Shown piece by piece: positions 1,006 to 46,620 of a stretch of 64,000 nucleotides of DNA. The position numbers were made by a program, and so were the translations under genes. Source of the stretch: Symbiodinium natans (lineage: Eukaryota > Sar > Dinophyceae > Suessiales > Symbiodiniaceae). The number at the start of each line of letters is the position of its first letter. Position 1 is the stretch's first letter. The notes under the pieces were generated by a model. It saw only the letters and a program-made list of their open reading frames with translations. It had not been told where the DNA came from and searched no databases. The stretch covers positions 239,155-303,154 of the forward strand of contig CAJNDS010002726.1 of assembly GCA_905221605.1 (NCBI GenBank), written 5' to 3'.

Positions 1006-1058
1006 GCCACGCTCGAGGAGACACAGGCCAACAATCTCGCTGCCCGGCTCAAGCGAGG
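1006..1058 (+). CDS. Gene 1 exon 1 (coiled coil)
   Basis: Acceptor ccgcctcag, then ATLEETQANNLAARLKR, then donor gcaagg. The exon ends in phase 2 and joins exon 2 cleanly (GG + A). The residues are amphipathic and charged, as in a coiled coil. It is the first exon I can see, probably not the first of the gene. Confidence 0.6.
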
Positions 1059-4000
1059 GCAAGGGCATGACATCTACATGTATATATGGTGTTATACTCA
1101 TGATGATATTATACAGATACATACGATATGAATATATATATATATATAATGCACTTCGATTTCAGTCCGCCAGGCCCCGCCTCCTGGATTCCCAGGGCTG
1201 GAAAAGCAGTGGAGCTTCCCGAATCTCAACGCGCCTGAAGTTCCTGAAAATCTTCAGCTGAACATGTTCCAAGAACCACACTAAGCGACACCCTCAAAAG
1301 AATCCTGAGCATGCCTTGTCAAAGGAAGGCATGGGTTCGATGGCCGAGAAGGTGCCATCCCAAGCTTCCCCGCGGGTTTCTCTTGGGCTTGGGATTCCGG
1401 GATGGCAGATTCGAGTGCTTTTGTGGTACTTTGGGGGATGCGGGGTGACGTGACGGCCGTAGCCTCAACCAGAACACCCACGGAAGCCGAGGTCTCGGAG
1501 GAGGCCACAAGGGCGCTGGAGGAGGCCTCCGGTCTGCATGGGGCCATCTTTTCTTCGTTGTCGGATGTGTTCGTGTGTGTGTGTGGTGGCTTCTACGGTA
1601 TGTACATGTATGTACGATATACCATGTAGTTGGGTTTTGTTGGGCTTGATCGGGCATTGGACCTGAGGCTTGCGATGGAGATGTCCATAGTCTAGAGTCT
1701 AGAGTTGCGAGTTCCTTAATTAAAGCCTTTGAAGTCTGAGCACTTGTTGAATTGCGAGCTTATGTTTTTGACACCTTCAGCGGTTTTGGTGTGTGAAGTG
1801 AGGAGGTTACGGCAGCCATTAGAAGCTCTCAAGCCCCTGGAACCGTGCAAGCTGCAACAAACACCCCCAAACCCTCAAGGCTGATATTGCATATCAGGTA
1901 GCAGGACCTTTGCCAAGTTGAGGCACAGCGCCGAATCGATGAGATCCACAACAAGCGCGTGGCGGAGGTTGCGTTGGGGATGTTGGGGTCAGGGGCTAGG
2001 ACTTTCAGACAGTTTCCGGCCATGTCCCTCAACCCCTTCTCGACCCGGCAAAGAAACTTCCACCATTCAATTCCTATAAGTCCCCGTCCTTGCCACCTTC
2101 CCCTGGTGCCTGAGCCAGGAGCAGAGGAAACAAGAGCAGCTGGTCCGCACGAAGCCATCCTGTTCATTCCCCCCCCCCCCCCCCCCCCCCAACGCGAGAC
2201 CTGCAAGCGCACTGCAATCCTAGAGTCACAAAAAACCAAGCTGTATGCTCACACTACAGGCTCTTGACCTTCACTAAATTCGCAGAGGGGGACGATGCCG
2301 GGATACATCAGAGAGTGAGCATCGTGGCCTGCAAGCCTGCGCCCAGTCTCCTTCAGAAACCAAGGCAGGAGAAGCAGAAGAAAGAGATGGAAGTGAAGGT
2401 CGAAGCCTTCATCAAAGAGACCAAGGCGATTTTCTTGTGTGTTTGGAGCCCTGGCTCCATGTGTTTCGACGAAGCGTTTCTGCTTGAAAGGTCACCGGTC
2501 ACTTTCAAGCCAGACCCCATCACAATCACAGCCTACAGTGCCTACAGGAGGAGGGGGCAGCGATGCTGGCAAAGGTGAAGGACGCAGAGGCGCGTGTGTG
2601 CCAGGAGTTGAAATGAATCTACAGGCTTCAAGGATGGTAGCTTTTCACCGCTAAAGCTTAGGTAGAATGTTCCAACGGAAGCAACTCCAAGGTTTCGGGT
2701 CTCAAGGGCTTTTTTGCAGACCAGGGTGTTGGAGGGCCAGGGCTTAGGATGCAACAGTTACGTCCAATTCCCCAAGGAAGCCATGGCCAAAATCAGATCC
2801 TCACGGAGTCACCATCGCCCACAGTCCTGTTTCTGGAAAGCCTTCTACTGGGAGCCTCTCAGGCGCTGGTGGAAAAGCTGAAGCAGCCGGAAGGCCTCGC
2901 ATGGGCAGTCCCATGTGCATGTGGGGCTTTTTGATCAATATGTGTAGCTCTTGTTTGGAAACTTCTCACATCTTCTCATATCAAAAACTACAAACCTGCG
3001 CCAACGTCCTTTTAATAATGCATAGGTACCTCATTCTCGGCTCGTTCTTTTGCACGACCACAGAAGGCTCGCCAGATGAGATCGTCGCCGAGGCCGAGAA
3101 AACTGACAAGGCCGGGTTTGGGCTGCTGGGGTGCGGTGACTCAACCGGCATGACACGGAAATGTCTTCAGAGTCAGAGTCCTCAACCTTCCAAAACAAGA
3201 CCTGGCCTGGCCCAGACTCAGCCTGGCTTTCTAAGGCTTTCAGGCTTAGGCTTAGGCTTTTTTTTTTCTTTTTTTTTTTTTGGGGGGGGGGGGTTTAAAT
3301 ATCGATTGCCCGTAGGGGCGCTTCCAGCAGGGACGGGCCCCACCCCGGCCCAGCCTTTCTCACCTGACTACTGGTGCAGAGTCCTCGAAGCTCTGCTTGC
3401 TACAAACAGTTGCTTAAACCCCCCCCCCCCACTTAAAGCTACAAAGCAGAGGCCGTGGAGGAGACGCGCGAGGGCGCCAAGCAGACGCGGGCAAAGATCA
3501 TGGAGCGACCTGGCCTTTAAAGATGGGATGTTAGGATGTTCTCAATGCGGGCTCTTGGCACCAAGCGCCTGGTGGCCCTGTGGCCCTGTGGCCCTGTGGC
3601 CCTGTGGCCCTAGCCTGGCCTCAGAATCAAGAAACTGTTGCTTTGAGAGGGTGGGAGCTCTCTTGGCGCTTCTCTTCGTGGGGTGGGAAGGGGGGGGTTC
3701 TTCACAGCAAAGGCGACTCAGATCTTCACCAGGCCTTGCTTCACATGATCTAAAGCAGAATGCACCATCCAATATTTTGGGGAGGCATAGTTTTCAGGAT
3801 GGTTCGCGAACGAACGAACTCACTGCGCTTTTTTGTACAACATACCAGCGAGTGCAGTACAGTGTCGAATCTTCACTGTCTTGGAGATTGATTCGTGCTT
3901 TAGAGACCGATGCTGAGCAGGATGGGCAGCTCTTCCAAGTGTATTGTGCTCTGCTTTCCGTGGAAGTGCATGCTTCATGTACATTCCCCGTTGACCTGTT

Positions 4001-7000
4001 GATAAACCGAGCCGACGTGATTCAACCTGGCCTTCGAATTAGGAGCGTAGGGTGTTTAGTGTGCAAATGCCATGAGGAAGCAGAAGGAGCTCGCAGACGC
4101 AGAGTCGTTCAGGAAGGCCACGTGGCAATGACAAGAGGTCACAGGTCCGATGCTAGTTGTGCAGGAGCTTGTATACAAATTGCTAGATGTGTTGGCATGA
4201 GTCAGGCATTGCGCTCACGGCACTCTTCTAGGCCGTACAAAATTGTTCACACAATCCACGGTCGTTCCTCCTGAGCCTTTCCTCTTGAACAACTGTAAGC
4301 TCTCAACCCAAGCAAGGCCTTTTAACCCTCGCTGTCTGGAGCGTGGCGTCGGATCTTGTCGGGCTTGGAGGGTTGCGGAGTTTGGGAGATGATGCCTTGA
4401 CATTTCCCAATGCTCGCAAGGGCCTCTCCCCCCCCCCCCCCCAAAAAAAAAAAATGCGCTCATTCACGCAGACATGCCGCATATTCTCAACCAATATAAT
4501 TGTTGAACTCACAGATGTTAGTGTCGCTGGAACTGGTCCCGAAGGTCAAACGCGAGATCCTGGAGCTCGTATCCCGACTGGCGGCCGGCGTCCGCCTCAT
4601 GGAGCGCTCCAAGGCCACTATACCGAGCTTTTTACACAAACCCGACAAGCGTAGGGTGCCTAGGCCCTATAGGCACTTCAGAGCCGTCGTATGTGTCTTT
4701 CTGACGTAAGATTAAATAAAGATCGAGGCCGGTGCAGGTTGTAGCCTCAAGTCCTTAAGCCCCAAGACCTCCCGCAAAGCCCGTTGGCCCCAAAGACCTG
4801 AGTGCGCAAGCCTAAACCCCAAATTCCCACCACAAACTCATCTGCAGGGCATCGTGCAGGGTGCTCTGGCTCGTGCCGAGAAGAAATCCTCAGCCCTCCA
4901 GCGCCATGCCACAGACGATTCCTCCAAGGTTTAGGGTTCAATAGGGTCTTGGGGTTGCATTTTTTCCTGTTGTTTTTCCGGCCTTCCCCAAACAAAGACA
5001 CTGCTCAAGAGATGTCAAGAGCCCCCCCCCCCCCCTGCTCGCCCAGTCCATCCCAGCCCCCTACACAGCAATGTATTGGAATTATGAGGACCCGGGTTTA
5101 GGGTTTAGGGAGTTTAGTATTTAGGGTTCAGGGATTAGAAATTGTACAGGGTTTGCGTCCACAGAAGTTTGGACCGAAACGTTTCCGCCTTGGCAGCTAG
5201 ATTTCATTTGTCTAGCATTCTGGCAAACAGATTTGGGCTCAAAGCGCAATTCATTAACTGCCACCCATCCAAGCCCGCAAAATTGACTTGAAAGAGGGAG
5301 GCCGGCAGGCATTTGGTGTGCAGGCCCCCGCAGTTGGCCTGTGGTTTTCTGAGGTGGTTGCCGAGACTAGACACGGTGGTGTGAGCCCAAATGATTCGGA
5401 GATAGCTGGCTGACCTTGCACAACGAAGGAGCTACGAGGGATTTAAGGGGAGCCCAGGCCAGTCAGAATGGCAGCATGGCATGGCGTCCTTGCCAAGGCG
5501 CTGTTGAAATTGAATGTTTACAGTTGGCTATAGCGCGTCCGAGCAAGGAAACTGGCAGAGCGCGAGCAGGAGTTCGCCCAGTTTGACAAAGACAAGGATG
5601 TACCAGGGATTGGCGAAGCTCTCTAAAGGCCGTATACTGGTAATGGCATGGTACACCTTTAAAGACCCTTAAATTTCGCGCCATTGAATCCCTCAATCAA
5701 TGAAAAATCCGCCAGCCTTGAAGCTTATTCGAGGGGAGTACTACAGGGCCCCCCCCACCACCCCCCCTCGGTTTCGAAAAGCCACGTGATCTGGCACTTG
5801 TCGCAAGCTGCACAGGGCTACACCCTCAATGCCCTCAAGCCCCAAGTCGTGCACCGTGAACCTGAATTCTGCACTCAAGGCCCCGAACTGCAAGCACGCT
5901 TTGCCAGTTGTAAACGATGGAGTGCAGGACGGCAAGCTCAATCGCCGGGAAGTCGAGTTGCCACTTGCCGTGAGGTCTCTACATCTTGAGGGGCATGAGG
6001 TGTCCAGAGTTTCGTCGTACAAAAGCGCCGGGGGGAAAAGGGGAGAGGGGGGGGGGGTGTGGGGGGTTGAAGTGGCTTCCGCGGCTTCTGGAAGCTAAGC
6101 CCCATGATCCTGAGAAGGGTAGCGGCTCCCATTCCTGATTGTGTGCCCAGGTGCCTGAGACCTGACGGACTAGGTTTGAGTGTCTAGGGTTGGTGGTTTG
6201 CCGGACCCCCGGCCTCCTGTGGGCTGTTTAGGGTATATGGGTTGGGCGAGGGACATGGGAACATGCAGCTTAGTTTCAATCTAAGACGCTTGACTCTAAG
6301 CGTGATGCCCAGTGATCCTTAAAGGGCCGACGATGGAAAGGCCATGAAACACGGTAGATGCCTCCATCACGCAAGCCCACAAGCAGGCAATGTAGACCTG
6401 AAAGCCTGACGGTCATATTTGTTCCCCAAGCTCAGCTGAAACTCAGAAAGAACGGGTGACTGCTAGTGGCGGTGAGAACCTGGGAGCACGCAGTGCCCCT
6501 ACAACCCTTAGAACTTAGCATCCTTAGAGAAGCCGAAAGCGACCACACATCGCCTATGTTTGCCGCAGTCAGAAACTTTGAGCCGGTGTACGGTGTTGGA
6601 GGTTGGGGTTCTAGTTTTATTGTCGGGGCTTTGGGCCTTAACGGTGAACGGCTTGTCCTGAGGTACTGCAAAGAGAAGCTAACCCAGCAGCTGCCAAAGG
6701 ACTCAGTGTTACGGCCTGTCCTGCTGGAATTCCGATCGGTTGGTACCCGAAACAACTCGAGACGTTCGTGCCGAAGGTTGAACAAGTCGGCTCGCCAAAA
6801 GCTCTTGAGCCTCAAGGAATGTGAAACTCCCCAAGCTGCAGCATGCATTGTCTCGTGGCGCTGGAAAGCGGGTCCGTGCTATACACGGTTACGTTAGTCT
6901 TTGGATTGTTGCAAAGCAAAATGGTGGGTCCTGGCATCAGGAGCATTGCCCTCGCGAAACTTTGCAATATTGTCAGAAATCCTCGATCCACGCCCCCTGT

Positions 7001-13000: not shown

Positions 13001-16000
13001 TTAAAACTGTGGGGGTAATTTCGGGAGGATTTCCGGAAAGTGTTTTTAGAATTAGGTGGGCATTTAATCAAAGGGGGAAGGGAGTACAGTAGCGCCAACG
13101 AAAACACCAGAAGCTCACACCTCCGAGGCGCGAGAAGAGCCTGAAGGGCCGGAACCTCACTGCGAGACTCCGGGGGCAGAGTGCGGTCTTGAGGTAGCAG
13201 CGATGAAATATGAATCCGGGGCAAGAGGGGGTTTGGAGCTGCGCAAGGGGTTGCTGCAATGTTCATAGTGGCTACGGTTATAGCGCAGCATCACTGGCCT
13301 GGCGGATTTGCAAAGAGTGGGTATTCGGTAGTCGGACAATCCCAGACCTTCCAAGCTATGGAGCTGGAACGACTTCTGTAAGTTCTATTCGACACGTAGC
13401 ACGCGGCGATATATATGAGTTCGGAAATACTTAAGAGCCTCCTTAAGAGCGAACAGATCTGAGGCCGACTCTCGAAGATCGTCGCAGCCGTGAAGCTCGC
13501 CAAGGAGAAGGCGTGATGGGCTTGTGGTGGTGGACAGTGGGCTAGACTTGCCAGCCCCGTAAGATTCTGTGGGTTAGGGCTTCAGGGAGCTTTGGGGTTG
13601 AGGGTGCAGAAAGCTTCAAACCAGCAGCCAAATCCGCAAGCCCTATATAAACCCTCAACGTAGGCCCTCAAGTCAGTTAAGTTCACCATGCAAGGCCAAG
13701 AGGAAGGCGTTTGCAGAGTTCGATCAGAAGCGCCACAGGGCCGCACAAAACCCTGATGCGTCCTGGTTTTGGAGTCTCCGCTCGGCCCCCGCCCCAACCC
13801 TTGACTCGCACATTCTTCGCATGTCTTAGTGGCCTTCGGATGGGCCGCGATCATCCCTCAATGAACCTTAAGCTCCCTCGCGAAGGAAAATTCCTGAATC
13901 CCCAACATATCGCAACTAACGGCTTGTGATTTGTGCATCCTCATGAGCCTTCCATCTTACTTTGCCACGGCACAGTCCAAAAGAGCGCAATACATCATCC
14001 TAAGCTCGAAAGACGACCAAGCGTCTCTTGCAGCTCACAGCTCTTGATGGAAGACCCGAACTCCTTCTCAACGTTCAGGTTTGCGAGTGTTTGGGACGGC
14101 TTTGGTGTTTGATATGGGAAGTTCTCATATTTTCAACCTCTTCTTGGGGTTGGGCGTGGCACGAGAGATTCCGAGGCACTGAGTGCGCCACAGCGATCCG
14201 ATCCAAGATGAACGCCGAGGCGGTGCCAGATCCCCCCCCCATTCCCCCTTCCCTCCCGAAACCCCGGCCATGCACAGTGACATTCAGGCCGGTTGTTGTT
14301 GGCTGTCGGCTCTCTGAACAGCCTGTTAGTGCAAACTCCTGCAACCCGGGAGCTCTAAACGGCTTGAGGAGAGCCCTGGAACCCTCGCTCAGGGAACCTG
14401 GTAGGGCCTTGCGGTGTATTTAGACTATCCCGAATCCCCGAATCCCCGAACCCCACAGCAGGCCTAGAGTGAAGGGCCTTGAAGACGTTTACAGTGATGC
14501 GGAGTGGCTGCGGGGCTCCAGTTCGATGGCAACACTTTAAGGCGCCCAATTCAAAAACAGCTTGATTTCTCTCACCGCACGGAAGAAAACCTCTTTCCTC
14601 GCTACTTGGCCCTCGAAAGATACTGAGAGAAACTGCCAGGCCCAGTCTGCTGACCAATTCTTCGAGGGGCTCAACTCGGGCGCTGCACTGTCGAAGGAGG
14701 TCTTCTTGAGCTTCCTGCAAGGCGGCTGGCTTTTCTGCAAGGATGTGCTTGTTTTTGGCTCTCTGGAACTTTGCATGGTGTCTCCGTATGCTGTCGATGT
14801 CTTGCGAACCTTGTATGAGTCTGGGTAGGCATTTCAGATCCGAGGGATCAGGATGGTGTACCGTCTGCCTGCCGTGCCTTTAAGTCTTGTTCGCATGACC
14901 GAGAGAAAGTGCAAAGTTGTTACTGGTACTGTGCGATCGAGTGGTTTTAGTTTACAATCGGTGTTTCATGGTATTTCTGCTTCTGTGTCTGTGTTACGTA
15001 CTAGGTACCTGTGCCTGTGTGGTTTGATTGCATGGTTGCAGGATGGGTCCTTTCTGGCGCGTTCAGAAGTGCAATTCAGGTTGCAAGTGCCTCAAAGGTT
15101 CGGCTGCGGATCGAAGCCATAGCAGAAACGACTCGACGCACCATATGAGACCCTGAGTGACAGAAGTTGACGCGGGATTGAAGAAACTTCCATCTTGATA
15201 CACCCATGAACTCCTGCTCAGAGGCTTGGATGGTCTGGAGCTCTTCGATGGGCAGGCAGACAAGCTCTTCAGCAATATGGCCGGCGAAGCAGGCTCTCGT
15301 CGCCAAAACATTTGGAGTCTAAGACTTCTAAGAGTTGTGAGCTTTCCGACTGCGACTGCAACACAGAAGCCCAGCACAGGGTCCCAATCCAAAACAAACC
15401 CAAAGAAGCCCCAAACCCGAGTCTGTCCGAGACGCTTAGCAGTAAACCATCCGTATGCCGCGCGCCAAAGTTCAAACTGAGCCCCCAATTGCGAGAAGCC
15501 CCTAAAACAAAAATCCGCGTTGCATCTGTTAATCGCGATTATACTTGCACTGAGAAACCTGCTTGCAAGTTTTCTCGTTTTAGGGGGTGAGGGATTGCAT
15601 TTTGGTCCCTACCGGATCATTAAGTTAGCTTGCCACCAAGCATATCAACCTCAGCCAAGTTTACAAAGCCCTATTCAAGTTCAAGCTCTTAGTCCAAGTA
15701 TTGGTCTTGGTTGCCGTGGATTCGCTCAACGAGGCTCTTGATTCAGAGGTGCGAACTGGGCTCTGCTCGAGCATTGATGCCTCGAACGGGCAAGTGAAGA
15801 GTTGAACCTCCAGCTTGGGAAGAGCAGTTCCCGAGCTTCCCATCTCTTCCATGGGAACAGATCTGAGCCCATATCTACTCTCCGCAAACTTGAGGACTTA
15901 AGCATGATTTCAGAAGAGGCCCACATTTTTGGCTCTTTGGGTTCTTTGACCCTTTTACCCTCCAGCAGTTCGTGAGACCGTGTTTGCCAGGCGAGATCAG

Positions 16001-19000
16001 CAAAGAGGGCTTCAAGGAGCTGGTCCGGGTCTTCTACAAGTGTGTGAAGGCCAGTCCCTGCATCGCCCCCCCGGGCTTCGATTTACGGCATCTAGCCACC
16101 ACGCTTTCCCGGCAAGATCCTATACTCACTTTTCCTCTAGGCGACGGTCATGAGCGAAGAGATGTCCATCAAGTCCAAGACAATCCGCCGCCTCGAGGTT
16201 GGCGAGGCCCTGTTGAGGGTTTTCAGGATTCGTTCAAGATGCCGGGCCAAAAGTCTGTTGCCCAACAGACGGCGGGGCCCAAAGTCCTCAAACAGCGCTT
16301 CACCACTTGCTCGGGTCTCGCCATTCATGGCTCCGGGTGTTGCAGGTACCTTTACCTGCAGGATCATTGCAGGCGTTTTTTCTCTCGGTGTTAGGTAAGG
16401 GTTTGAGTTCACATGGTGTTCTGCGGGTTCAGGGACGCGAGTTCATGCCAAACAAATGCCTCAGCACCCATGTAATAGGCTGCAGGGCCGCAGAAGTCAA
16501 CAGATGATGGCAGGGTATGATACATGATGCGCTGAATCCATACTCACTCTTGGAGTCTTCATCAAGAAGTGGCTGCCTGAGTCTTGCAAGGAACAAGGCG
16601 ACAAGGGGTCGGGTTAGGCACAACAAGTTGCTGCCAGGCATGATCGAGTATTCAAATGTCTTTGTTGTCATTGGTACGGGTTCCTTCCTACTTCTTCGCG
16701 TGTTGAATACATATTTACTCAGTCGACTTTGTGATGCTCTTCTGGCGATGCTTGCCCCGTGCTGCACACGCAACAGTGAACGAAAGCTTGTTTGCTTAAC
16801 AGCTTTCATGAACGGAGGTGGAGAGTGGCCCGAGCGGCAGACGCATTACGTTCTTGTCTGCTCGTTGCAGTAGACAGCGGCATATTCATTCAGAAGTTGC
16901 TCCATCAGCCATCCGCGTTTTGTATTTCTGCAGGGTCCTAACCTATATCCCTTGCACCACCTGAATGAGTCCCCACGAGCATTTTGGATCCCTGGGTTAC
17001 CTGAACTCTTGTTCAAATTTTTCAGCCACCGGGATGTCGCACCAGCGGCCTATAGACGCCCCAGTCCCGTTAATTCCTCAACTCCTGAATTTAGGATTTG
17101 TTTAGTGTTCCTTCTTTGGTGCCGCTGTTTGTCAGGTGCTCGAGGCCTTGGAAGGGCCAACAATGGAGGAGGTGCCGGTGTGGGGATGTGTGGAATAAAT
17201 ATTCTTCGATGCTTCGGATATTCCCTTTTGGTTTCGAGATGAAAAAATATATGAGCCCAGGGTTTAGAGTTCAGAGGTGTGGGCTGCGGGCTTCTGCCTA
17301 TACCTTGTTCAGCGAATCTCGGGCTCAAGGGCTTGTAGCACTGGGAATTGTGTTGAGTCTAAAAACGAATTCCGGGCTTGCCTTTGCTGCTGAGTGTTCA
17401 TGCTCCGAGCTGGGGGAATGCATATATGGATATGTCCCAGAATGTTGCCTCTTTGGGACAGTCCCGTCAGGCGACGAAGGTCAAGCGCCTTCGATGTTTG
17501 GCCACTCAGGAGTTCACGGGAGGCTTAGTGCTGGCATTCAGAGGTCAGGATGGAAGACATACTTTAAACTTTCGTGTTGTGTCCCTGACCAATGCTGCGA
17601 TAGCAGCTGTTAGTACCATGGGCAAGTGCCGAAAAGATAACTCATGATTTTGTCGGCGTTCCTCGCCACCTCTTGCAGACCAGACAAATCAGGTCAAATA
17701 GCCTGTAGACTCTTCAGAATCAGAAGCTGGCAGCAGTCCCACTTGTTGCGGTGCTTGCGAGGATGAATGCACAGGCTGGGTTACACTCGCAGGCCTGGCA
17801 GCCCGAGTTGTCTTCCTGCTCAGGGCAGATGAAGATTGAAGAGCGATCTAGCTTCTTTTTATCCGCTTGTACCCTGAGCCTGGCAATGCCTGATACTGCA
17901 CCTACTGGCGCGTTTATCTCTAGCCCTAAGCCCCTAAGCCTCAGCCCAAGCCCTGGGGTTGAACGCTTCGACGTTAACATGAAAGCCTTGTTAGCAACGG
18001 ATAGATCGCTACCCGGCTTAAGCCTACGCAGTTCAGGCCAACTTGTTTGGCCAAATGTTACAGCATGCCCGGAACCAGCACCAGGATCATCGCACCAAAG
18101 CCCTCGGACCCGGACAGGCAACCAGGGGACATCGTTCCTGGAAGCCGGTGGGAATTTCTACACCTGCGTCAAGGACATGCCGCTGTACAGGTTTAGGGGT
18201 TAAATTTCGCCAGCGAGCGCCCCAACCTCCGCTATCGCAAGTTTGGCTTGGCATGCAGGCTTCTCGGGGCAGTCTGCAATCAACCTGGCACCAGGGTTTC
18301 TGAGAAGTGCATATGTTTGAGGAGGCGTAACAACTGGGCGTGCATCTTGTGCTACACGTCAAACAGTGACTGAGTACGTTCTACGAGGCTAGTATATGCT
18401 ACTGAACCTCGCTTTCGCACAAGCGGGAGATGGGCTGAGGGCGCTTAGAGAAGAAGAGCCTGGGCACTTCTGATTCAACGCCACCTGAATCCTCATATCT
18501 AGAGTCCAGAACCCACTAAGTATGTAAATCCCAAAAGCTCCTACACACCCCATCCAAGCCACGAGCCTCTACTTCCAGGAGACCTTGATTACTGACGGCC
18601 TCTGTGTGCAAGACAGCAAAACTGTCCGGCGCTTGGCGAAAGGCTCGTGGGAGATGGGGGGTTTAGGGGCATGATGTGGGAATCGGTCCTTTGACTTCCA
18701 TTTTCACTCTAGGTTTTCGGGCGAGAATTGTTTCTATCTCCGGGTTGAGCTTAGAGGGCTAGATGACAGGGTTTGAACACAGGGTTTGAACTCAGGGTTT
18801 CGGTGGTGGAAATCGATACAGTTGTCCTGACGGAGCTGTTGAAGTGTGTGCTACGGAAGTGGAGTAGGGCTGTGCGTGTTTACGGAAGCTTCATCGGTTC
18901 GCCCTTTCATTGGCATGAAGGGAAGAGAGTGAGCGCAATGCACTAATCATTCATCAACAAGGGTCTTTATGCTTCTAGTGAGTTGTGGTGTGTTTGCCTG

Positions 19001-21050
19001 AAGTCCTGCAGTCTTCCATGCGATAAGACAAAAACCTGGGGGCTGGCATTGTCGTTTACCTGTCATGTGAAGCCCCAGAGCCCTCACTTGCTAAGCACCA
19101 AGCACGAAACCCGAACGTTAAAACCCTGCACACCTGATGAAGCACACCCTTGTCATCTGCCAGGGGAGGTGGTGGAGGTTCTGGAGTTTCCCAAGAAGGA
19201 CACTTGATTCGGAAAGGGGTGGGGGCATTGCTATACGTCTTCACCGTAAATTACTCAGGGGTGGATTTTGCTGTGTGGGTGGATCTAGGGTTGGAGACGT
19301 TCGGACGAGGGATGTGGGCTTTCAAGGGGGTGAACGTGTAAACTAGGCTCGGGCGACTAGGGGTGAGTTGCTTGAGGATTTCAGGGACTGTGAATTCAAA
19401 GCCCTGGTACTTCCGGCAGAGTTGAAGTTGAAGCCCGAAATTGAAATTAAGAGCCCGTAGTCCCGCACAGCAATGCAACACAACCTGTCTGTGCAAAAAG
19501 GTGACTGGAACCCGGACACCTTAAAAACGAAGAGGAAACAATGCACCCCAAGCCAAGCTACGCCAAGAAAAGGGTATACCTCAAAACTTTGGTGTCCAAC
19601 TCCACAGGACGCCACAGCCGACGTGCGGCGGATCAAAGGCAATCATGCTGTTTTGGGTTTTGGGTTTTTCTTCTGGTCTGGGCATCGACTGCACTGAGAC
19701 GCGGTATTATGTGCTGGAAGTGGGACAGCCTTTTTCCACCACGAAGTCCTCAAGTCTTCTAGATCCTTGCACCTCTTTGCGTGCACGAATCCACTGCCCT
19801 CTTCGACCCAAGCTCCCAAAGCCCCTTAGAGCAAACTGTGGAAACAGAACAATCACAGCAGAAGACGCCGCCAGGCAAGGCGAAGCAGGACGGCGCGGTC
19901 GGATGGCATGGCACCCAGCAAAACCGCAAGTGTTTGGGTCGTATCGCGATGTACGGCTTGCAGATGTAGCTTAGGGCCTGCATATGAGAGTTGGGGAGTA
20001 CACGAGGGCTCGGACTCTCGAGTCTAGCGTGTGTTTTCAAGTTCGCCTTGTAGGGATTATGGGGTTGGGGTCGAGGAGCTTAGTGAATCTGGGCTTTTTG
20101 CTGGAAAGTTTGGGGAGGTTGGCATGATGCCATGCTCAAGGACCTACGGTGTACAACATTCTGCTAGTAGTCGGGGGTTTTGAAACCAGCCCCGGACGCT
20201 TCTCATTGCTTGAAAATGTCCGGCTTCGGTGCCGTATCCGCTCCTTTGGGTCGTGTTTTGAGGGCCCCAGCGCCACATGCAGTGCCACGTGTCAAGGATC
20301 ACGATTGCCAGCAATGCGGGAACGGCCTTCCTCGAACCCTGCTGAGGGAGCGGTGGGTATGATGCATGGCATCCTTCCCCTTTCTGCAGCGCATAGATGA
20401 AGAAGGGGTGGATTCAGAGATCCGAAACTCCTACACTGCTCAAAACCCTCCACCTCGTAGAAATCGCAAGACTGGCTTAACGAGAGAGACACGTAGGAAT
20501 TAAACGCTGGCCCTCAGCCTTCTCGCCCTCAACACTGAAGACTGCAGAGGGGGTTGCTTGCCGAGCCCAGGGAGGCACAGTTGGCTGACACAACCGCTCT
20601 TTACGCCCTAGATGCCATCGAATTGTGCAAAAGACTTTCTTTCTGCACCCCGGCTGCCAGAACCATGACATCCTTCAGTCGTACTTGACAGGATGACGGG
20701 CGGACTTAGTACATTCGGTACGCAGTCCAGAAAAGGGACCCAATTGAAGTCATCTTATTTAACAAACCTACTCACCTATGCATATAGTATATGTATGTAC
20801 ATACATATGTATATATGCATAATGAATATATAGCCCCTCTCCCAATCCACCCCTGGGTTTAGGCTCTAGTGCTGAATGTATATGTGAAAGCCTAAAGCAA
20901 CAGTAAGTAGCTATGCCCTGAATGCCCCAACTGTCCTCCTCAGCCAAACCAGCAACCCTTATGAAGCCTATAAAACCCAGTGACCAAGTGTGCAGCTCTG
21001 TTCCTCCTCTCAGCGTAACGGTCGCGGAGCGCGAAGCCAAAAAGCGTCGA
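1006..21050 (+). CDS. Multi-microexon gene 1: coiled-coil / EF-hand / repeated SH3-like module protein (partial)
   Basis: I infer one gene from about 40 short blocks, all on the + strand. They sum to roughly 1.8 kb of coding sequence in 20 kb. Each block follows a pyrimidine-rich stretch ending in AG, uses mainly G or C at third codon positions and gives plausible protein, while the DNA between them is stop-rich. My donor choices are about 27 GC, 8 GT and 5 GA. Order: coiled coil (exons 1-12), EF-hand (13-14), coiled coil (15-25), degenerate EF-hand-like part (26-28), then two modules ending in GTSFLE and GTAFLEP (29-39). I recall large dinoflagellate predicted proteins with phrases like these, but cannot check that. 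A calcium-sensing cytoskeletal or scaffold role is only a guess. The exon set is incomplete: phases fail before exons 9, 13, 39 and 40, so exons are missing there. The true start and stop are not seen. Confidence 0.72.
1473..1524 (+). CDS. Gene 1 exon 2 (coiled coil)
   Basis: Acceptor aaccag, then TPTEAEVSEEATRALEE, then donor gcctcc. The phase continues from exon 1. An acceptor at 1462 is possible, so the start is uncertain by about 10 bases. Confidence 0.6.
1929..1967 (+). CDS. Gene 1 exon 3 (coiled coil)
   Basis: Acceptor ggcacag, then RRIDEIHNKRVAE, then donor gttgcg. It is 39 nt, phase 0 at both ends. Confidence 0.65.
2119..2142 (+). CDS. Gene 1 exon 4 (coiled coil)
   Basis: Acceptor gagccag, then EQRKQEQL, then donor gtccgc. 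It is 24 nt in phase 0. A longer form ending at 2153 with a GC donor reads on sensibly but breaks the phase with exon 5. Confidence 0.55.
2169..2190. repeat. Poly-C tract
   Basis: An uninterrupted run of about 22 C, in the intron between exons 4 and 5. Confidence 0.95.
2369..2425 (+). CDS. Gene 1 exon 5 (coiled coil)
   Basis: Acceptor caaggcag, then 19 codons EKQKKEMEVKVEAFIKETK, then donor gcgatt. Phase 0 at both ends. Codons such as ATG GAA GTG AAG GTC contrast with the surrounding stop-rich DNA. Confidence 0.72.
2548..2589 (+). CDS. Gene 1 exon 6 (coiled coil)
   Basis: Acceptor gcctacag, then EEGAAMLAKVKDAE, then donor gcgcgt. 42 nt, phase 0. Translation continues for a few more plausible residues, so the donor could lie slightly downstream. 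Confidence 0.65.
2863..2893 (+). CDS. Gene 1 exon 7
   Basis: Acceptor gcctctcag, then ALVEKLKQPE, then donor gcctcg. It ends in phase 1, matching exon 8 exactly (G + AT makes the Asp codon). Confidence 0.65.
3076..3110 (+). CDS. Gene 1 exon 8 (coiled coil)
   Basis: Acceptor ctcgccag, then (D)EIVAEAEKTDK, then donor gccggg. The core DEIVAEA recurs in exon 20, which suggests an ancient duplication of the coiled-coil block. Confidence 0.68.
3262..3293. repeat. T-rich tract followed by poly-G
   Basis: Runs of T interrupted once by C, running straight into about ten G. Intronic simple sequence between exons 8 and 9. Confidence 0.8.
3450..3490 (+). CDS. Gene 1 exon 9 (coiled coil)
   Basis: Acceptor acaaagcag, then (E)AVEETREGAKQTR, then donor gcaaag. 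Translation is also open and plausible to 3505 (AKIME). The start phase does not fit exon 8, so a small exon between 3111 and 3449 is probably missing. Confidence 0.6.
3569..3611. repeat. 9-bp tandem repeat (GTGGCCCTG)n
   Basis: About five near-perfect copies of GTGGCCCTG. Intronic. Confidence 0.9.
4084..4116 (+). CDS. Gene 1 exon 10 (coiled coil)
   Basis: Acceptor gaggaagcag, then KELADAESFRK, then donor gccacg. 33 nt, phase 0 at both ends. Confidence 0.65.
4429..4453. repeat. Poly-C joined to poly-A
   Basis: About 13 C followed directly by about 12 A. Intronic. Confidence 0.9.
4515..4613 (+). CDS. Gene 1 exon 11 (longest exon, 99 nt)
   Basis: Acceptor actcacag, then 33 codons including LELVPKVKREILELVSRL and ending MERSK, then donor gccact. 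Third positions are strongly G/C. It is the longest exon in this gene and joins exon 12 in phase 0. The predicted structure is a long helix. Confidence 0.78.
4848..4928 (+). CDS. Gene 1 exon 12 (helix/coiled coil)
   Basis: Acceptor catctgcag, then 27 codons beginning GIVQGALARAEKKSSALQ and ending DDSSK, then donor gtttag. Phase 0 at both ends; follows exon 11 directly. Confidence 0.78.
5089..5140. repeat. Degenerate TTTAGGG telomere-like words
   Basis: Several GGGTTTAGGG-like words in a row, then degenerate variants. This is the plant/alveolate telomere motif in an interstitial, intronic position. Confidence 0.75.
5548..5596 (+). CDS. Gene 1 exon 13 (EF-hand, first half)
   Basis: Reads KLAEREQEFAQFDKDK, then donor gatgta. 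The final Asp-Lys-Asp-Lys supplies EF-loop positions 1-4, and exon 14 supplies positions 5-12, so a GA-AG intron splits the loop. If GT at 5600 were used instead, an extra Asp would spoil the loop spacing. The acceptor is unsure (5543 or 5547) and an upstream exon is probably missing. Confidence 0.72.
5928..5969 (+). CDS. Gene 1 exon 14 (EF-hand, second half)
   Basis: Acceptor ggagtgcag, then DGKLNRREVELPLA, then donor gtgagg. With exon 13 the loop reads D-K-D-K-D-G-K-L-N-R-R-E, with Asp at 1, 3 and 5, Gly at 6 and Glu at 12. That is a canonical calcium-binding pattern. Confidence 0.78.
7126..7151 (+). CDS. Gene 1 exon 15 (tentative)
   Basis: Acceptor gatctccag, then DVLDVILA, then donor gcttgg. 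Its place after the EF-hand fits the helix expected there, but the evidence is thin. The frame stays open downstream for about 30 residues. Confidence 0.4.
7560..7583. repeat. Poly-C tract
   Basis: About 24 uninterrupted C, among the longest homopolymers in the window. Confidence 0.95.
8061..8099 (+). CDS. Gene 1 exon 16 (coiled coil 2)
   Basis: Acceptor atcgctcag, then SELLARQKAAEEE, then donor gcagcc. Phase 0, joining exons 17 and 18 in frame. Confidence 0.66.
8429..8461 (+). CDS. Gene 1 exon 17 (coiled coil 2)
   Basis: Acceptor aatcagtcag, then ERQRQLEEERK, then donor gcctcg. 33 nt, phase 0. Strong heptad-like charge pattern. Confidence 0.72.
8702..8755 (+). CDS. Gene 1 exon 18 (coiled coil 2)
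   Basis: Acceptor ttcgagcag, then SPKLTDPIRKAAQAALAE, then donor gtctcc. 54 nt, phase 0. Confidence 0.7.
9354..9380 (+). CDS. Gene 1 exon 19 (coiled coil 2)
   Basis: Acceptor ttgcggag gives phase 0 and reads ASAAEAENK, then donor gcacgg. An alternative acceptor at 9334 adds a few residues but breaks the phase. Confidence 0.5.
9842..9874 (+). CDS. Gene 1 exon 20 (coiled coil 2)
   Basis: Acceptor gtgcatgcag, then ASDEIVAEADE, then donor gtacac. It repeats the DEIVAEA core of exon 8, with different codons, which argues for selection on the protein. Confidence 0.72.
10501..10542 (+). CDS. Gene 1 exon 21 (coiled coil 2)
   Basis: Acceptor accgcgcag, then RPDKAEALASRAEQ, then a probable GA donor (gacttt). 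Phase 0. Confidence 0.55.
11264..11302 (+). CDS. Gene 1 exon 22 (coiled coil 2)
   Basis: Acceptor gttcctgcag, then ELQTASAKHAEQK, then donor gccatg. 39 nt, phase 0. Confidence 0.7.
11609..11674 (+). CDS. Gene 1 exon 23 (coiled coil 2)
   Basis: Acceptor aagctgccag, then 22 codons including NEGLKATTQQDLREVRAADV, then donor gcgctc. Phase 0. Confidence 0.7.
11952..11990 (+). CDS. Gene 1 exon 24 (coiled coil 2)
   Basis: Acceptor caactgccag, then ELQRLDQQLGTVR, then donor gtgttc. Phase 0. The following intron holds the dispersed repeat at 12.1-13.1 kb. Confidence 0.7.
12276..12312. repeat. (GA)n microsatellite
   Basis: GA-rich run ending in about ten clean AG dimers, inside the insert that splits the dispersed repeat. 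Confidence 0.9.
12384..12632 (+). other. Unassigned open frame in the insert
   Basis: An 82-residue frame rich in Thr, Arg, Gln and Gly (for example GPRPQQTGGRNRENTTTRTP). It overlaps open frames on both strands in purine-rich DNA, so it may be only a compositional effect. I do not recognise it; it could be a decayed mobile-element protein. Confidence 0.15.
12772..12830. repeat. (GAA)n then (GA)n microsatellite
   Basis: GAAGAAGAA repeats with one AAAA interruption, ending in GAGAGAGAGAGAG. Confidence 0.93.
12883..12930. repeat. (CA)n then (TCAC)n microsatellite
   Basis: CACACACACA followed by about seven CACT units, at the right end of the insert. Confidence 0.93.
13478..13510 (+). CDS. Gene 1 exon 25
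   Basis: Acceptor ctctcgaag, then IVAAVKLAKEK, then donor gcgtga. Phase 0 into exon 26. A downstream acceptor at 13486 is possible. Confidence 0.62.
13695..13739 (+). CDS. Gene 1 exon 26 (second EF-hand-like segment)
   Basis: Acceptor catgcaag, then AKRKAFAEFDQKRHR, then donor gccgca. The FAEFD phrase parallels FAQFD of exon 13, but the residues that follow (QKRHR) lack the acidic ligands, so calcium binding here is probably lost. Confidence 0.65.
14646..14741 (+). CDS. Gene 1 exon 27
   Basis: Acceptor gcccag, then 32 codons starting SADQFFEGLNSGAALSKEVF, then donor gatgtg (phase 0, fits exon 28). A GC donor at 14722 is the alternative. The L.SGAALSKEVF..F part resembles the second half of an EF-hand without calcium ligands. 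Confidence 0.65.
15256..15292 (+). CDS. Gene 1 exon 28
   Basis: Acceptor gatgggcag, then ADKLFSNMAGEA, then donor gctctc. It ends in phase 1 and joins exon 29 (G + GC) to give NMAGEAGEISKEGF. A longer start at 15222 is open but out of phase. Confidence 0.7.
15991..16049 (+). CDS. Gene 1 exon 29
   Basis: Acceptor tgtttgccag, then EISKEGFKELVRVFYKCVK, then donor gccagt. Phase fits both neighbours. The helix leads into the first SH3-like module. Confidence 0.82.
16141..16206 (+). CDS. Gene 1 exon 30 (module 1 start)
   Basis: Acceptor ttcctctag, then 22 codons including SIKSKTIRRLEVGE, then donor gccctg. The intron before it is only about 91 bp, the shortest in the gene. The (S/D)SKT.RRL..G phrase recurs in exon 35, which marks a repeated module. 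Confidence 0.85.
17136..17171 (+). CDS. Gene 1 exon 31 (module 1)
   Basis: Acceptor gtttgtcag, then VLEALEGPTMEE, then donor gtgccg. Phase 0. Counterpart of exon 36 (VVEVLEFPKK). Confidence 0.82.
17471..17522 (+). CDS. Gene 1 exon 32 (module 1)
   Basis: Acceptor tcccgtcag, then ATKVKRLRCLATQEFTG, then donor gcttag, ending in phase 1. The spacing to the next GW agrees with the second module (exons 37-38). Confidence 0.8.
17775..17792 (+). CDS. Gene 1 exon 33, an 18-nt microexon (module 1)
   Basis: Acceptor aatgcacag, then GC TGG GTT ACA CTC GCA G, then donor gcctgg. With exons 32 and 34 it gives G-GWVTLA-GNQG with both phases correct. It is the smallest exon found; its reality rests on the precise phase fit and the matching GW...G.AGT arrangement in module 2. 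Confidence 0.78.
18118..18173 (+). CDS. Gene 1 exon 34 (module 1 end)
   Basis: Acceptor acccggacag, then NQGTSFLEAGGNFYTCVK, then GA donor gacatg. The GT at 18191 would break the frame into exon 35, whereas the GA donor keeps it. Confidence 0.82.
18579..18642 (+). CDS. Gene 1 exon 35 (module 2 start)
   Basis: Acceptor tacttccag, then ETLITDG followed by SKTVRRLAK, then donor gctcgt, ending in phase 1. Homologous to exon 30. Confidence 0.83.
19164..19198 (+). CDS. Gene 1 exon 36 (module 2)
   Basis: Acceptor atctgccag, then (G)EVVEVLEFPKK, then GA donor gacact. Homologous to exon 31; the phase fits exons 35 and 37. Confidence 0.82.
19608..19638 (+). CDS. Gene 1 exon 37 (module 2)
   Basis: Acceptor actccacag, then DATADVRRIK, then donor gcaatc, ending in phase 1. 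Corresponds to the KVKRLR region of exon 32. Confidence 0.76.
19875..19910 (+). CDS. Gene 1 exon 38 (module 2)
   Basis: Acceptor gccgccag, then (G)KAKQDGAVGWH, then donor gcaccc. Corresponds to the EFTGGW region of module 1. The phase to exon 39 does not close, so a further microexon is expected between 19911 and 20311. Confidence 0.74.
20312..20340 (+). CDS. Gene 1 exon 39 (module 2 end)
   Basis: Acceptor gattgccag, then NAGTAFLEP, then donor gctgag. Homologous to NQGTSFLEA of exon 34. Confidence 0.72.
20783..20830. repeat. TATG/TATA microsatellite
   Basis: ATGTATGTACATACATATGTATATATG-like sequence with local self-complementarity. Confidence 0.85.
21014..21050 (+). CDS. Gene 1 exon 40 (tentative last visible exon)
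   Basis: Acceptor cctcctctcag, then VTVAEREAKKRR, then donor gctttt. The phase from exon 39 is off by one base, so it may belong after a missing exon or be a chance frame. No stop exon is identified. Confidence 0.48.
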
Positions 21051-22436
21051 GCTTTTGGATATTCCAAGGTAGATTGCTGCATAGGCTGCTGAGGGCTGTT
21101 GCTTAAAATTAATTCCTACACCAAGGGAAAGTGAGGAAGCAAACAGTCGTGCACATGTTCTAGACGTTTAGAGATGTGGCATTTAGATGCATTTAGACCA
21201 TGTTCCGCTTCAGGGACACTGATCTGCCAAGTCCTTATGGACGCAGCTCCGAAGGGGCGTATGCTTCTGAGGAACATTTGAAGCTTTTGTCGAGTATTAT
21301 TGCGAGCGTGTGGGCCCCAAAGCCTCAGCTGAATATGGCCCACATTTCTTGAAACCCAGTATAGAGTGGCCTGAAGGTAGCCTGAGCAGGTTTAGGCTTC
21401 AGGATTTGGATCTGAGCTCAGCAGTCAGCAGTCCAGGAGGTTGTGTTTGTCTAGCGCATTGTCTGCCCCCCACCTTGCCACCTCGAGCAAGAAGGCGTAC
21501 ATCCAAACAGCTACGCTTAGCTGCAACAGGCCTTTGCTACACGCAGCAGAAACAGCATAATTACTTCCCAAATCTCAGCTCCCTCCTGTCCACCAAAAGC
21601 AAGAGAAGGGTCTCTGACGTCAGGCCTGGCTCTTACGGTGCGGCTGACGGGCTCCTCCCTTGGCTTGGCTCTGAGATGCTCTGAGAGGATTCCGAGGTTT
21701 GTTGTCTGCTACAGTCTCAGCAAGTCCTGAACTTTGTCAAAGCACTCGTCCCAGCAGGGAATCGATGCGCTCAGGTGCACACGGACAAAATCTTGTCTAC
21801 TTGCCTGAAGTCCCCTGTGCTCTCCATTGCTGAATGCCGATCCCCCCCCGTGAATTGCTCGAAGAAATCCGAGCATATTTGGGCAGGACTAATTTTGGAT
21901 TGTATAGTCCCTGGAACTGTATTTTTTCGGGTCGTTTGAAGTTTGGCGCATCATCCCAGAGCCACCGCCCCCTCCGCCTCTTCCACTATACAGGGATACC
22001 GAGGTTCACTCATCATTAGACAACAGGTCAGAGCTACGATGTGAGGGAAGCCCTAAAAGCTGATGATGGTGTGAAGCAAGAGATGCCCCCACATTCTTCC
22101 AAGCCCCCAGGTTCCACTTCTCCAGCACCCCACGGCTTCCAGGCGGATGCTTCTAGGGTTTGGAGCAGCTTGCGGACCTATAGTCCTTGTTCGCAGTGGG
22201 CCTTTGTGGTTGTAGACGTTTTTTGGATCAACAAGGACAGTACAAGGATCTACAAACGCCATCAAACTTTAGAGTGTGTCAGATCGTGCCCGGGCCACGC
22301 TGGAAAAGGGTTTCGACGAGACTTTTACAGATCTGGGTTCTGTGGATTCCATGAGCCTTGGCATTCTCTTGGCACATTCAATTCTTCCACTCTCCTAGAA
22401 GCATGCTTCTCTAGAGGGGATGTGTGCCGTGCCCAG

Positions 22437-45610: not shown

Positions 45611-46620
45611 TCGAATTCAGACTTATGTGCACCCATCCGTCTGTTTCGGGTTGGAGTTTGTTCCGGCAGGCCCGCAAGCAGCACGATTTCAGACTCGTGT
45701 ACTTCAGTGGGGTCGTCGGCTTCTCGGTTGGCCACGGGGTTCACCTACTCTTGCTGTTCAGGGTCAACTCAGGGGGTGTGATGCTGAAACCATTCGTATT
45801 GTCCGGGCAGCTGGTTTGTAGACTCGGCTACTGAGTTTGCCCCAGGGTTGTTTTGCAGGGCAGCTCGCGCACTTTGTTGACCAACACCCTTCATCTTGGG
45901 TCTCGTGCACGGGTGTGCCACATCCAGTTGAGTGGGGTGTTCACTCCGGCTGTGCGCGGTGGTTGAAGCACGCCCAGTTGCTGTTAACTGGTAGGTCTAA
46001 TGCCTTTCTTGCCTCCGGTCTGAATAGCTTGCAGTCATGCTCCCAGTGGCAGTCGGTGCCGCGTTTGACCCCCATTGTTTTTAGTAGCAACAATCAGATT
46101 CATCATGTGCGTTATTGGGGTCTGGCTCGGTGTGGCCATCACGACTTCGCGGATGGCAGGTCCGCCCGTCATCGCGGAAACACCTCTGATGCCCCTTGTC
46201 GATCCTTGTCGTTTTTGCGCATCTTGTGTTGGCTCCCTCGCACATGCATTTGTAGAATGCCCTGCTCATCATCAAGCACGCAGTCGCTGGCGACGGCAAA
46301 CCTCCGGACGGCGCGTTTTTTCGTGGCACACATTGTTTTCCACGGACCCGGCTGTCAACACTGACCGAAACGTTGAGTGCAACATTGCCTTCGTTGGCCG
46401 TGTGCGCCACGCAGCTGCCGCGTGTCAGATGTGACCTGAGCTGTAGGAACTTCAAACAATCCCCCCGAACCTTGTACTTCATTTTTGGCACGTTGTTGTT
46501 ATCCTTGGATCGTATACTGTTGTCGCCGTGTATAGTGATCCTGTTACGTCATGTGTTATGTTTCACTTTCTGACCATAACGCATGGTCGTTCGAAGACAA
46601 GTCTCTCTCTGATCGAGTGC
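45611..46620 (+). mobile_element. Nested fragment of a second non-LTR element (C-terminal part and 3' tail)
   Basis: In shifting frames this reads LLGWPRGSPTLAVQGQL, GQLAHFVDQHPSSWV and a terminal C-x2-C...H-x4-C type knuckle, CRFC...SLAHAFVEC, then a stop and about 150 bases of A+T-richer tail. The GWP.GSP phrase and the terminal Cys/His knuckle are what I expect at the end of a different LINE-like protein. Copy A resumes right after it (YGRQ.ST.GG). The exact ends and any target duplication could not be fixed by eye. Confidence 0.55.

What the first reader, a model, noticed from the sequence alone, without database searches (positions are those of the whole stretch)
1006..21050. A gene split into about 40 microexons across 20 kb
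Blocks of 18-99 nt (mean about 45) join in frame over most of 1.0-21 kb and give one coherent protein, while long open frames in the same DNA do not. A coding fraction near 9 percent with exons this small is extreme even for dinoflagellates, and ordinary gene finders would miss it. This is the strongest candidate for an undescribed structure in the window.
Basis: partly seen in the sequence, partly recalled or inferred. Interest (0 to 1): 0.92.

Follow-up and report, generated by a model that had tools for sequence, protein, structure and literature searches.

The report
Algal gene in ~50 tiny exons
A gene of a dinoflagellate alga appears to be cut into roughly fifty very short coding pieces spread over more than 20,000 bases, which intron-free and intron-poor relatives in the same genome support; it sits at the small-exon end of what is normal for these algae rather than being a new kind of gene.

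Summary
I curated 48 blocks of 12-99 nt (mean 42.5) at 607-21068. Joined in phase they give 680 aa without a stop; donors GC 33, GT 7, GA 7; 46 of 48 acceptors AG|G, the published profile of Symbiodinium natans. The strongest evidence is an intronless paralogue on contig C202 with an 895-aa open frame. Spliced alignment to it scores 621.5, against at most 182.2 for 8 shuffled proteins and at most 140.5 for 8 shuffled DNAs. With codon and splice weights re-estimated on 200 kb of other contigs, 29 of 30 exons called in the first 24 kb overlap curated ones. Corrections: the gene begins about 5.4 kb or more upstream of the window, and exon 607-657 was missed. A 10% coding fraction is not extreme. 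Exons are about half the genome's usual length, but a similarly small-exon stretch occurs in the 200-kb sample. The product looks like a coiled-coil, EF-hand protein with two C-terminal repeats. Seven exons are tentative, one of them doubtful, and the 3' end is unresolved. No transcript could be examined. New member of a known kind.

The parts
   Evidence: paralogue A ILQKLAAVTPENYDHIK, ungapped; AG|G (alone only E 6.1)
1006..1058 (+). exon ATLEETQANNLAARLKR; donor uncertain (1026/1038/1058)
1174..1196 (+). exon PRLLDSQ, tentative
   Evidence: phase and AG|G only; falls in an alignment gap; not
1329..1351 (+). exon MGSMAEK; start uncertain (1325/1329)
   Evidence: 1325-1351
1492..1524 (+). exon VSEEATRALEE
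1923..1967 (+). exon AQRRIDEIHNKRVAE
   Evidence: paralogue AQLRVEQIKQHRAEE
2119..2153 (+). exon EQRKQEQLVRT; donor uncertain (2142/2153)
   Evidence: 2119-2142; not
2365..2425 (+). exon QEKQKKEMEVKVEAFIKETK; acceptor uncertain (2365/2369)
   Evidence: 2369-2425; 2369-2392; not
2548..2589 (+). exon EEGAAMLAKVKDAE
   Evidence: 2548-2580
2863..2893 (+). exon ALVEKLKQPE
3067..3110 (+). exon SPDEIVAEAEKTDK
   Evidence: 3076-3110
3452..3504 (+). exon AVEETREGAKQTRAKIM
   Evidence: 3452-3502
4077..4116 (+). exon KQKELADAESFRK
   Evidence: one search keeps only 4113-4116
4515..4613 (+). longest exon, MLVSLELVPKVKREILELVSRLAAGVRLMERSK; acceptor AG|A
4848..4900 (+). exon GIVQGALARAEKKSSAL
   Evidence: 4848-4928
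5548..5596 (+). exon KLAEREQEFAQFDKDK, first half of the EF-hand loop
5928..5959 (+). exon DGKLNRREVE, completes the EF-hand loop DKDKDGKLNRRE
   Evidence: EF-hand_6 match at residues 238-259 spans the joins at 245 and 255.7, E 4e-4, below cut-off
6663..6699 (+). exon YCKEKLTQQLPK
   Evidence: found with the paralogue, YAKGEFRFPLSK
7126..7161 (+). exon DVLDVILAKLGP; donor uncertain (7151/7157/7161)
7243..7271 (+). exon ESRFENVEL, tentative
   Evidence: end chosen after the paralogue, PRALFQRVKV; other ends; not
8042..8099 (+). exon KLFIAQSELLARQKAAEEE
8429..8461 (+). exon ERQRQLEEERK
8732..8782 (+). exon AAQAALAEVSSLYSTSE
9354..9380 (+). exon ASAAEAENK
9660..9671 (+). exon ESDK, tentative (12 nt)
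   Evidence: 9642-9671
9842..9874 (+). exon ASDEIVAEADE
   Evidence: paralogue GRDEITAASEA
10512..10541 (+). exon AEALASRAEQ
11264..11302 (+). exon ELQTASAKHAEQK
11609..11626 (+). exon ANEGLK; donor uncertain (11626/11641/11674)
   Evidence: longer
11952..11990 (+). exon ELQRLDQQLGTVR; donor uncertain (11974/11984/11990)
   Evidence: 11952-11984; not; ending at 11974 it joins 13128 directly in phase
12336..12364 (+). exon ARARAEERE, doubtful: lies in a stretch inserted in a repeat that has a second copy at 56.67-56.93 kb
   Evidence: by phase and AG|G; speak against it
13128..13147 (+). exon REKSLK; end uncertain
   Evidence: other ends
13464..13510 (+). exon RLSKIVAAVKLAKEK
13695..13731 (+). 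exon AKRKAFAEFDQK, tentative
   Evidence: not
14176..14219 (+). exon TECATAIRSKMNAE, tentative
   Evidence: not
14640..14721 (+). exon AQSADQFFEGLNSGAALSKEVFLSFLQ, degenerate second EF-hand by alignment
15224..15292 (+). exon LDGLELFDGQADKLFSNMAGEA
15991..16049 (+). exon EISKEGFKELVRVFYKCVK
16141..16206 (+). exon ATVMSEEMSIKSKTIRRLEVGE, repeat 1
17136..17171 (+). exon VLEALEGPTMEE, repeat 1
17471..17509 (+). exon ATKVKRLRCLATQ, repeat 1
   Evidence: longer
17762..17792 (+). exon DECTGWVTLA, repeat 1
   Evidence: paralogues GAEGWATIT and GTVGWATAT; 17775-17792
18118..18173 (+). exon NQGTSFLEAGGNFYTCVK, end of repeat 1, start of repeat 2
18579..18642 (+). exon ETLITDGLCVQDSKTVRRLAK, repeat 2
19164..19198 (+). 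exon EVVEVLEFPKK, repeat 2
19608..19638 (+). exon DATADVRRIK, repeat 2
19875..19905 (+). exon KAKQDGAVG, repeat 2
21014..21068 (+). exon VTVAEREAKKRRAFGYSK, tentative 3' part; acceptor AG|C; Cys where the paralogues have Trp
   Evidence: 21014-21043; end 21068 set by hand; not

Best explanation
A protein-coding nuclear gene of a Symbiodinium (assembly size and G+C closest to S. natans) is split by spliceosomal introns into about 40-48 exons of about 43 nt inside the window, plus about six or seven upstream. Splicing with GC, GT or GA donors and mostly AG|G acceptors joins them in frame. SHOWN by computation: the exon chain as a whole, its coding and splice signal, and colinearity with an intronless paralogue; a further paralogue has about eight introns. 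INFERRED: the gene is expressed; the product is a protein of very roughly 850-900 aa with a dinoflagellate N-terminal domain, long coiled coil, one canonical and one degenerate EF-hand, and two C-terminal repeats with a faint SH3-like signal; it probably acts as a calcium-responsive scaffold. The introns show no sign of recent introner copies among themselves; this was not tested against the whole genome.
For: Split-half gene model far above shuffles and reverse strand. Two C-terminal repeats align at 131 against shuffles of mean 25.4, max 55, n=2000. In the same genome, uninterrupted frames on C1905 (302 aa, E 3.5e-27, query 17-204) and C202 (895 aa, E 1.7e-25, query 19-207) match the 218 aa joined from exons 36-48, spanning all 12 joins. 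Spliced alignment to the C202 protein, similarity plus splice score only: 621.5, against shuffled protein mean 166.8, sd 9.0, max 182.2 (n=8), shuffled DNA mean 120.6, max 140.5 (n=8), reverse strand 106.2, reversed protein 170.1; with the codon term 959.4, against maxima of 340.0 and 93.0 for the two kinds of shuffle, 62.6 and 336.9. Joined 680 aa against paralogue A: score 502, shuffles mean 69.2, max 120 (n=300); 32 of 47 joins lie in ungapped stretches with at least 4 residues on both sides. Codon and splice weights re-estimated on 200 kb outside the window (started from the window's splice matrix and a generic codon table): 29 of 30 exons at score 8 or more overlap curated ones, 39 of 48 at score 4 or more. 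The same weights with the paralogue as guide: 46 exons in range, 41 overlapping, 29 identical. Published S. natans donors GT 23.6, GC 58, GA 18.4% and AGG acceptors 97.1%; before I read these, the self-trained model had GC 33, GA 4, GT 3 of 40.
Against: No transcript or protein evidence was available. Seven of 48 curated exons are missed by the guided path (1174, 2365, 7243, 11952, 13695, 14176, 21014), which adds five others. Runs pick different tiny exons between 6.0 and 8.0 kb, 9.0 and 10.5 kb, and 12.0 and 14.6 kb. Exon 12336-12364 lies in an insertion within a repeat. No convincing last exon with a stop was found, and exon 48 would give Cys where the paralogues have Trp. The joined protein's EF-hand hit (E 4e-4) is below Pfam's cut-off, it has no PDB match up to E 0.1, and a 53-aa query found no viral-contig relative. 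The unconstrained phase test was 3 of 6 in one half. Phase consistency and the absence of stops in the curated chain are partly built in.
Confidence: 0.93

Rival explanations
1. The locus is a decaying pseudogene: an ancestral intron-rich gene whose exons still look coding but which is no longer expressed, the intronless C202 copy having taken over.
For: No clear terminal exon with a stop; Trp to Cys in the last repeat; an intact-looking intronless paralogue exists.
Against: Open frames and splice signals survive in most exons, though the curated chain is in phase and stop-free partly by construction. The two proteins are so diverged (35-38% identity in the C-terminal part) that a long-dead copy should have lost its frames (inference).
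Confidence: 0.08
2. Chance: a permissive splice grammar (AG acceptor, GC/GT/GA donor, blocks under 100 nt) lets coding-looking blocks be chained in random DNA.
For: The grammar is permissive; my own models add doubtful 12-25 nt exons, and low-scoring chains appear on shuffled DNA.
Against: Shuffles, reverse strand and shuffled-protein controls are all far below the real score; colinearity with paralogues that read through.
Confidence: 0.01
3. Several neighbouring genes on one strand rather than one gene.
For: Dinoflagellate genes lie in unidirectional arrays (passages); no transcript links the parts.
Against: One open frame on C202 is colinear with exons from about 5.4 kb upstream of the window to 19.9 kb in one order.
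Confidence: 0.03

Closest known systems
Ordinary intron-rich genes of Symbiodiniaceae (S. natans averages, PMC10666404 Table 2)
   Same: GC/GT/GA donors, AG|G acceptors, intron length (mean 392 here, 486 published), coding fraction of the order of 10-20%
   Different: About three times as many exons (about 48 in the window plus about six upstream, against a mean of 15.7) and exons about 0.4 of the mean length (42.5 against 106 nt)
Micro-exon genes (MEGs) of Schistosoma mansoni (PMC10526429, abstract start in the search listing: short exons of 3-81 bp, long introns, secreted proteins)
   Same: Coding sequence made of many very short exons between longer introns
   Different: Coiled-coil and EF-hand protein (secretion not tested); exons not regularly a multiple of three (19 of 48)
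Aphid bicycle and megacycle genes (PMC9168663, passages: megacycle has more than 100 microexons, about 2000 aa)
   Same: Very many microexons in one gene; the published extreme is larger than this one
   Different: No relationship of the proteins was tested; bicycle internal exons are almost all phase 2, here the phases are mixed
Intronless paralogue C202:879878-882565 and paralogue C1602:572894-577683 (span of the aligned exons) of the same genome
   Same: By alignment the same N-terminal domain, coiled coil and EF-hand region; C202 also has the two C-terminal repeats (the C-terminal end of C1602 was not fetched)
   Different: 0 and about 8 introns

Membership tests
dinoflagellate spliceosomal multi-exon gene | GC, GT or GA donors in dinoflagellate proportions | tested here: met
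   GC 33, GT 7, GA 7 of 47 against 58, 23.6, 18.4%. Donors were restricted to these three, and published weights were used from then on; before that GC 33, GA 4, GT 3 of 40
dinoflagellate spliceosomal multi-exon gene | AG|G acceptor | tested here: met
   46 of 48, but curation favoured AG|G from then on; of the 10 sites set by eye beforehand 8 are AG|G, one AG|A and one was misplaced
dinoflagellate spliceosomal multi-exon gene | exons join in frame to a protein with relatives | tested here: met
dinoflagellate spliceosomal multi-exon gene | spliced, trans-spliced transcript | not testable with these tools
   no transcriptome held
EF-hand protein | Pfam EF-hand above gathering score | tested here: not met
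   joined protein: EF-hand_6 20.3 bits, cut-off 25; paralogues A and B exceed it. The loop DKDKDGKLNRRE fits the EF-hand pattern as recalled
SH3-like repeat | Pfam SH3 model above cut-off | tested here: not met
   SH3_3 E 0.051, 14.2 bits, cut-off 27
introner-derived introns | introns share sequence, or have terminal inverted repeats | tested here: not met
   0 hits among the 47 introns at E 1e-3; inverted match of at least 8 nt between the 25-nt ends in 0 of 47. Against about 290 kb of other held sequence 3 introns have hits: 215 of 218 rows from one with telomere-like repeats, 3 from introns 30 and 31. The whole genome was not searched with introns
Schistosoma micro-exon gene | exons in multiples of three (recalled as typical) | tested here: not met
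   19 of 48
aphid bicycle gene | internal exons almost all phase 2 | tested here: not met
   entry phases 0: 31, 1: 9, 2: 8 of 48

The most novel reading that the evidence does not exclude
Within one genome a single protein family has members with 0, about 8 and about 50 introns, and the extreme member's introns carry no trace of introner elements. Its microexon state would then reflect a gene-specific burst of intron gain (or unequal loss in the others) by an unrecognised route, and a splicing machinery that handles exons of about 40 nt with non-GT donors routinely.
Probability: 0.25. Interest if true: 0.55.

Novelty: new member of a known kind. Interest (0 to 1): 0.38.

Why it matters
It shows that a gene built of exons of about 40 nt with mostly GC donors can be read from raw dinoflagellate DNA, and that an intronless paralogue can stand in for a missing cDNA. 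Such genes are probably easy to miss or truncate in annotation (not tested here). The series of 0, about 8 and about 50 introns in one family is a handy test case for intron gain and loss, and for how exons this small are recognised.

Tried and rejected
Relatives in IMG/VR: none; 28 stretches matched a pattern and none was confirmed. PDB: one weak hit for the C-terminal 218 aa, E 0.74, none up to E 0.1 for the joined protein; paralogue A matches EF-hand proteins there (best E 3.2e-5). Pfam on a hand-joined middle part gave PPV_E1_N at E 0.0067, 17.3 bits under a cut-off of 22.5, which I take as composition noise in a coiled coil.

A spliced-leader relic as a sign that C202 is a retrocopy: no match printed with up to 4 errors in any locus held then (motif from memory), so retroposition is unproven; a poly(A) tract was not tested. 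Introner origin: no support within the gene. Shared intron positions with C1602: 2 of 8 identical, chance about 2.4% each, 6 of 8 not shared; the direction of change is undecided, and the C1602 model had no shuffle control. My first spliced alignment was flooded with zero-length exons, so I raised the intron cost. The first curated chain broke frame after exon 17; exon ends were revised with the paralogue in view, so searches are the more independent tests. Exon 31 (12336-12364) looked acceptable until one search showed repeat copies on both sides of it; a 47-exon chain without it, with exon 30 ending at 11974, is also in phase and stop-free (665 aa). The Cpn60 family as an exon-length baseline was too fragmentary: 15 matches. 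Pfam found nothing in four open frames at 44-49 kb.

Full report
What was claimed.

Where the window lies. It is C2414:239155-303154 of a 759,417,921-base assembly in 2543 contigs. Published S. natans has 761,619,964 bp, 2855 scaffolds and 51.79% G+C (passages of PMC8045281); the 2-kb bins of 1-44 kb have 51-55% G+C. The species is therefore an inference, not a test. Splice-site usage fits it: S. natans has GT 23.6, GC 58 and GA 18.4% donors, 97.1% AGG acceptors, 15.7 exons per gene, mean exon 106 and mean intron 486 bp (section 5 of PMC10666404 read in full).

Is it more than chance? I wrote a small gene finder (exon = AG acceptor, phase-consistent codons, GC/GT/GA donor). Started from a generic codon table and eight made-up splice strings and trained on one half of 1-21.1 kb, it scored the other half 152.8 and 190.5, while 60 dinucleotide shuffles each averaged 63.3 and 61.9 with maxima of 94.8 and 93.7, and the reverse strands gave 66.2 and 48.8. 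A free exon list without the chain gave phase-compatible neighbours in 8 of 10 and 3 of 6 pairs, so that test alone is not decisive. Two stretches of the joined C-terminal protein are repeats of each other: alignment score 131, against a maximum of 55 in 2000 shuffles.

The strongest evidence: paralogues. The joined C-terminal 218 aa (exons 36-48), searched against the whole genome, gave 14 matches; the best two are uninterrupted reading frames elsewhere: C1905:355701-356267 (302-aa frame, E 3.5e-27, query 17-204) and C202:881966-882523 (895-aa frame, E 1.7e-25, query 19-207). Both spans cover all 12 of the joins in that query. The C202 frame is a complete-looking intronless gene. I aligned its protein to C2414 with a spliced aligner. 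Counting similarity and splice signals only, the real score was 621.5; eight shuffled proteins averaged 166.8 (max 182.2), eight shuffled DNAs averaged 120.6 (max 140.5), the reverse strand gave 106.2 and the reversed protein 170.1. The splice weights in that run came from curated exons of the window, but the same weights served every control.

With codon and splice weights re-estimated on 200 kb of four other contigs, the guided path had 46 exons in the range; 41 overlap curated ones and 29 are identical, seven curated exons are missed and five others added. That training started from the window's splice matrix with a generic codon table, so it is not wholly independent. Without any guide the same weights called 30 exons at score 8 or more in the first 24 kb, of which 29 overlap curated exons (39 of 48 at score 4 or more); the reverse strand gave 6.

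The curated model. There are 48 exons from 607 to 21068: mean 42.5, median 39, range 12-99 nt, 35 of 48 at most 51 nt. Introns average 392 (median 331, 81-1108). Coding is 10.0% of 20,462 nt, 680 aa, no stop; the joins are in phase by construction of the chain. Donors are GC 33, GT 7, GA 7; acceptors AGG 46, AGA 1, AGC 1. Against paralogue A the protein scores 502 (300 shuffles: mean 69.2, max 120), and 32 of 47 joins lie in ungapped stretches with four or more residues on both sides; against paralogue B it is 297 (max 70), 11 of 15 joins. Tentative are the exons at 1174, 7243, 9660, 12336, 13695, 14176 and 21014, and several ends (see parts).

Of these, 12336-12364 is doubtful: the DNA on both sides of it, at about 12101-12235 and 12987-13083, matches one repeat copy at 56.67-56.93 kb that lacks the stretch between. 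Leaving it out and ending exon 30 at 11974 gives a 47-exon chain, 665 aa, again in phase without a stop.

Beyond the finding's coordinates. The gene does not start at 1006. Exon 607-657 follows an upstream exon at about -621 to -592, ungapped against the paralogue, and the N-terminal domain (YYWDERDGPSFNGWWFGPK then VGGDQVWAYN...) lies about 5.4 to 3.2 kb before the window, C2414:233747 on. The whole gene therefore spans about 25-26 kb or more with roughly 47-55 exons. The upstream exons were found with the paralogue as guide and not tested one by one.

What it encodes. Paralogue A has an EF-hand pair above Pfam's cut-off (EF-hand_7, E 4.1e-9). In the window gene an EF-hand loop, DKDK|DGKLNRRE, is assembled across the join 5596/5928 (EF-hand_6 E 4e-4, below cut-off), and the second EF-hand has lost its loop (14640-14721 against DKDGDG in the paralogue). 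Most of the rest is coiled-coil-like by eye. The two C-terminal repeats give only a faint SH3_3 hint (E 0.051). A calcium-responsive scaffold is my inference.

How unusual is it? Exons are about 0.4 of the published mean. With the same re-estimated weights and threshold, 310 exons from 200 kb of other contigs, both strands, have mean 110, median 84 and 23% at most 51 nt, against mean 53 and median 51 for 30 in the window. One run there (C1905 minus strand, 39 exons, mean 82) has ten exons in a row with mean 55, against 53 for the smallest ten of the window's run. At a looser threshold two short runs of 12 exons have means of 49 and 50, but such calls include false ones. Detection favours long exons, and false calls tend to be short, so these numbers are rough. 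One 50-kb block (C149) held 5000 N.

The coding fraction is ordinary for dinoflagellates. Larger microexon genes are published in aphids (more than 100 microexons, passages), and a class of them in schistosomes (listing). A search for 'microexon' with 'dinoflagellate' listed three papers, none on dinoflagellate genes by title, so I saw no prior account of a dinoflagellate gene of this shape in that library; most papers of subscription journals are missing from it.

Origin. A third paralogue, C1602, has about eight introns over the aligned part, with exons of 21-566 nt (no control run). Two of its eight intron positions coincide exactly with C2414 positions and six do not. The 47 introns show no similarity to one another at E 1e-3 and no terminal inverted repeats; they were not searched against the whole genome. 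Whether C2414 gained introns or the others lost them stays open, and no spliced-leader relic was found to mark C202 as a retrocopy.

Verdict. A well-supported, strongly fragmented dinoflagellate gene: a new member of a known kind, of moderate interest, chiefly for the intron series within one family.

Noticed in passing
window 12101-13083 and 56670-56930: An interspersed repeat: two flanks at 12101-12235 and 12987-13083 match one copy at 56.67-56.93 kb (75-77% identity); the 12-kb copy has about 750 nt with AG, AGA and CACT repeats inserted between.
   Followed up: partly
window 53681-56120: A 2.4-kb TGT-type triplet array with extreme strand skew (GC skew 0.92, AT skew -0.97 over 54-56 kb).
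   Followed up: no
window 44106-49311: G+C-rich stretch (62% and 67% in the bins at 44-46 and 48-50 kb) with overlapping long open frames that look like a broken non-LTR reverse transcriptase (recalled resemblance); Pfam found nothing in four frames at E 0.01.
   Followed up: partly
window 57887-59095: Tandem arrays of about 35 nt with the core AAACCCTAAAAGAAGATGTTGGGTGGGC, containing telomere-like CCCTAAA units.
   Followed up: no
window 5094-5154: Telomere-like TTTAGGG repeats inside an intron, matching many places on other contigs of the genome (215 of 218 rows).
   Followed up: partly
G000 contigs C835, C1347, C1602, C1902, C2110, C2433 and others: The N-terminal domain (WDERDG..GWWFGP.VGG..VWAY) is a multi-copy family, on 25 of the 27 contigs listed at E 0.05 or better, some in long open frames and some in short ones; the C202 protein, which carries it, had no Pfam match in that stretch up to E 1.
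   Followed up: partly
L035-L039 (C149:20001-70000): 5000 of 50000 bases read N, so a stretch there is withheld or unassembled.
   Followed up: no
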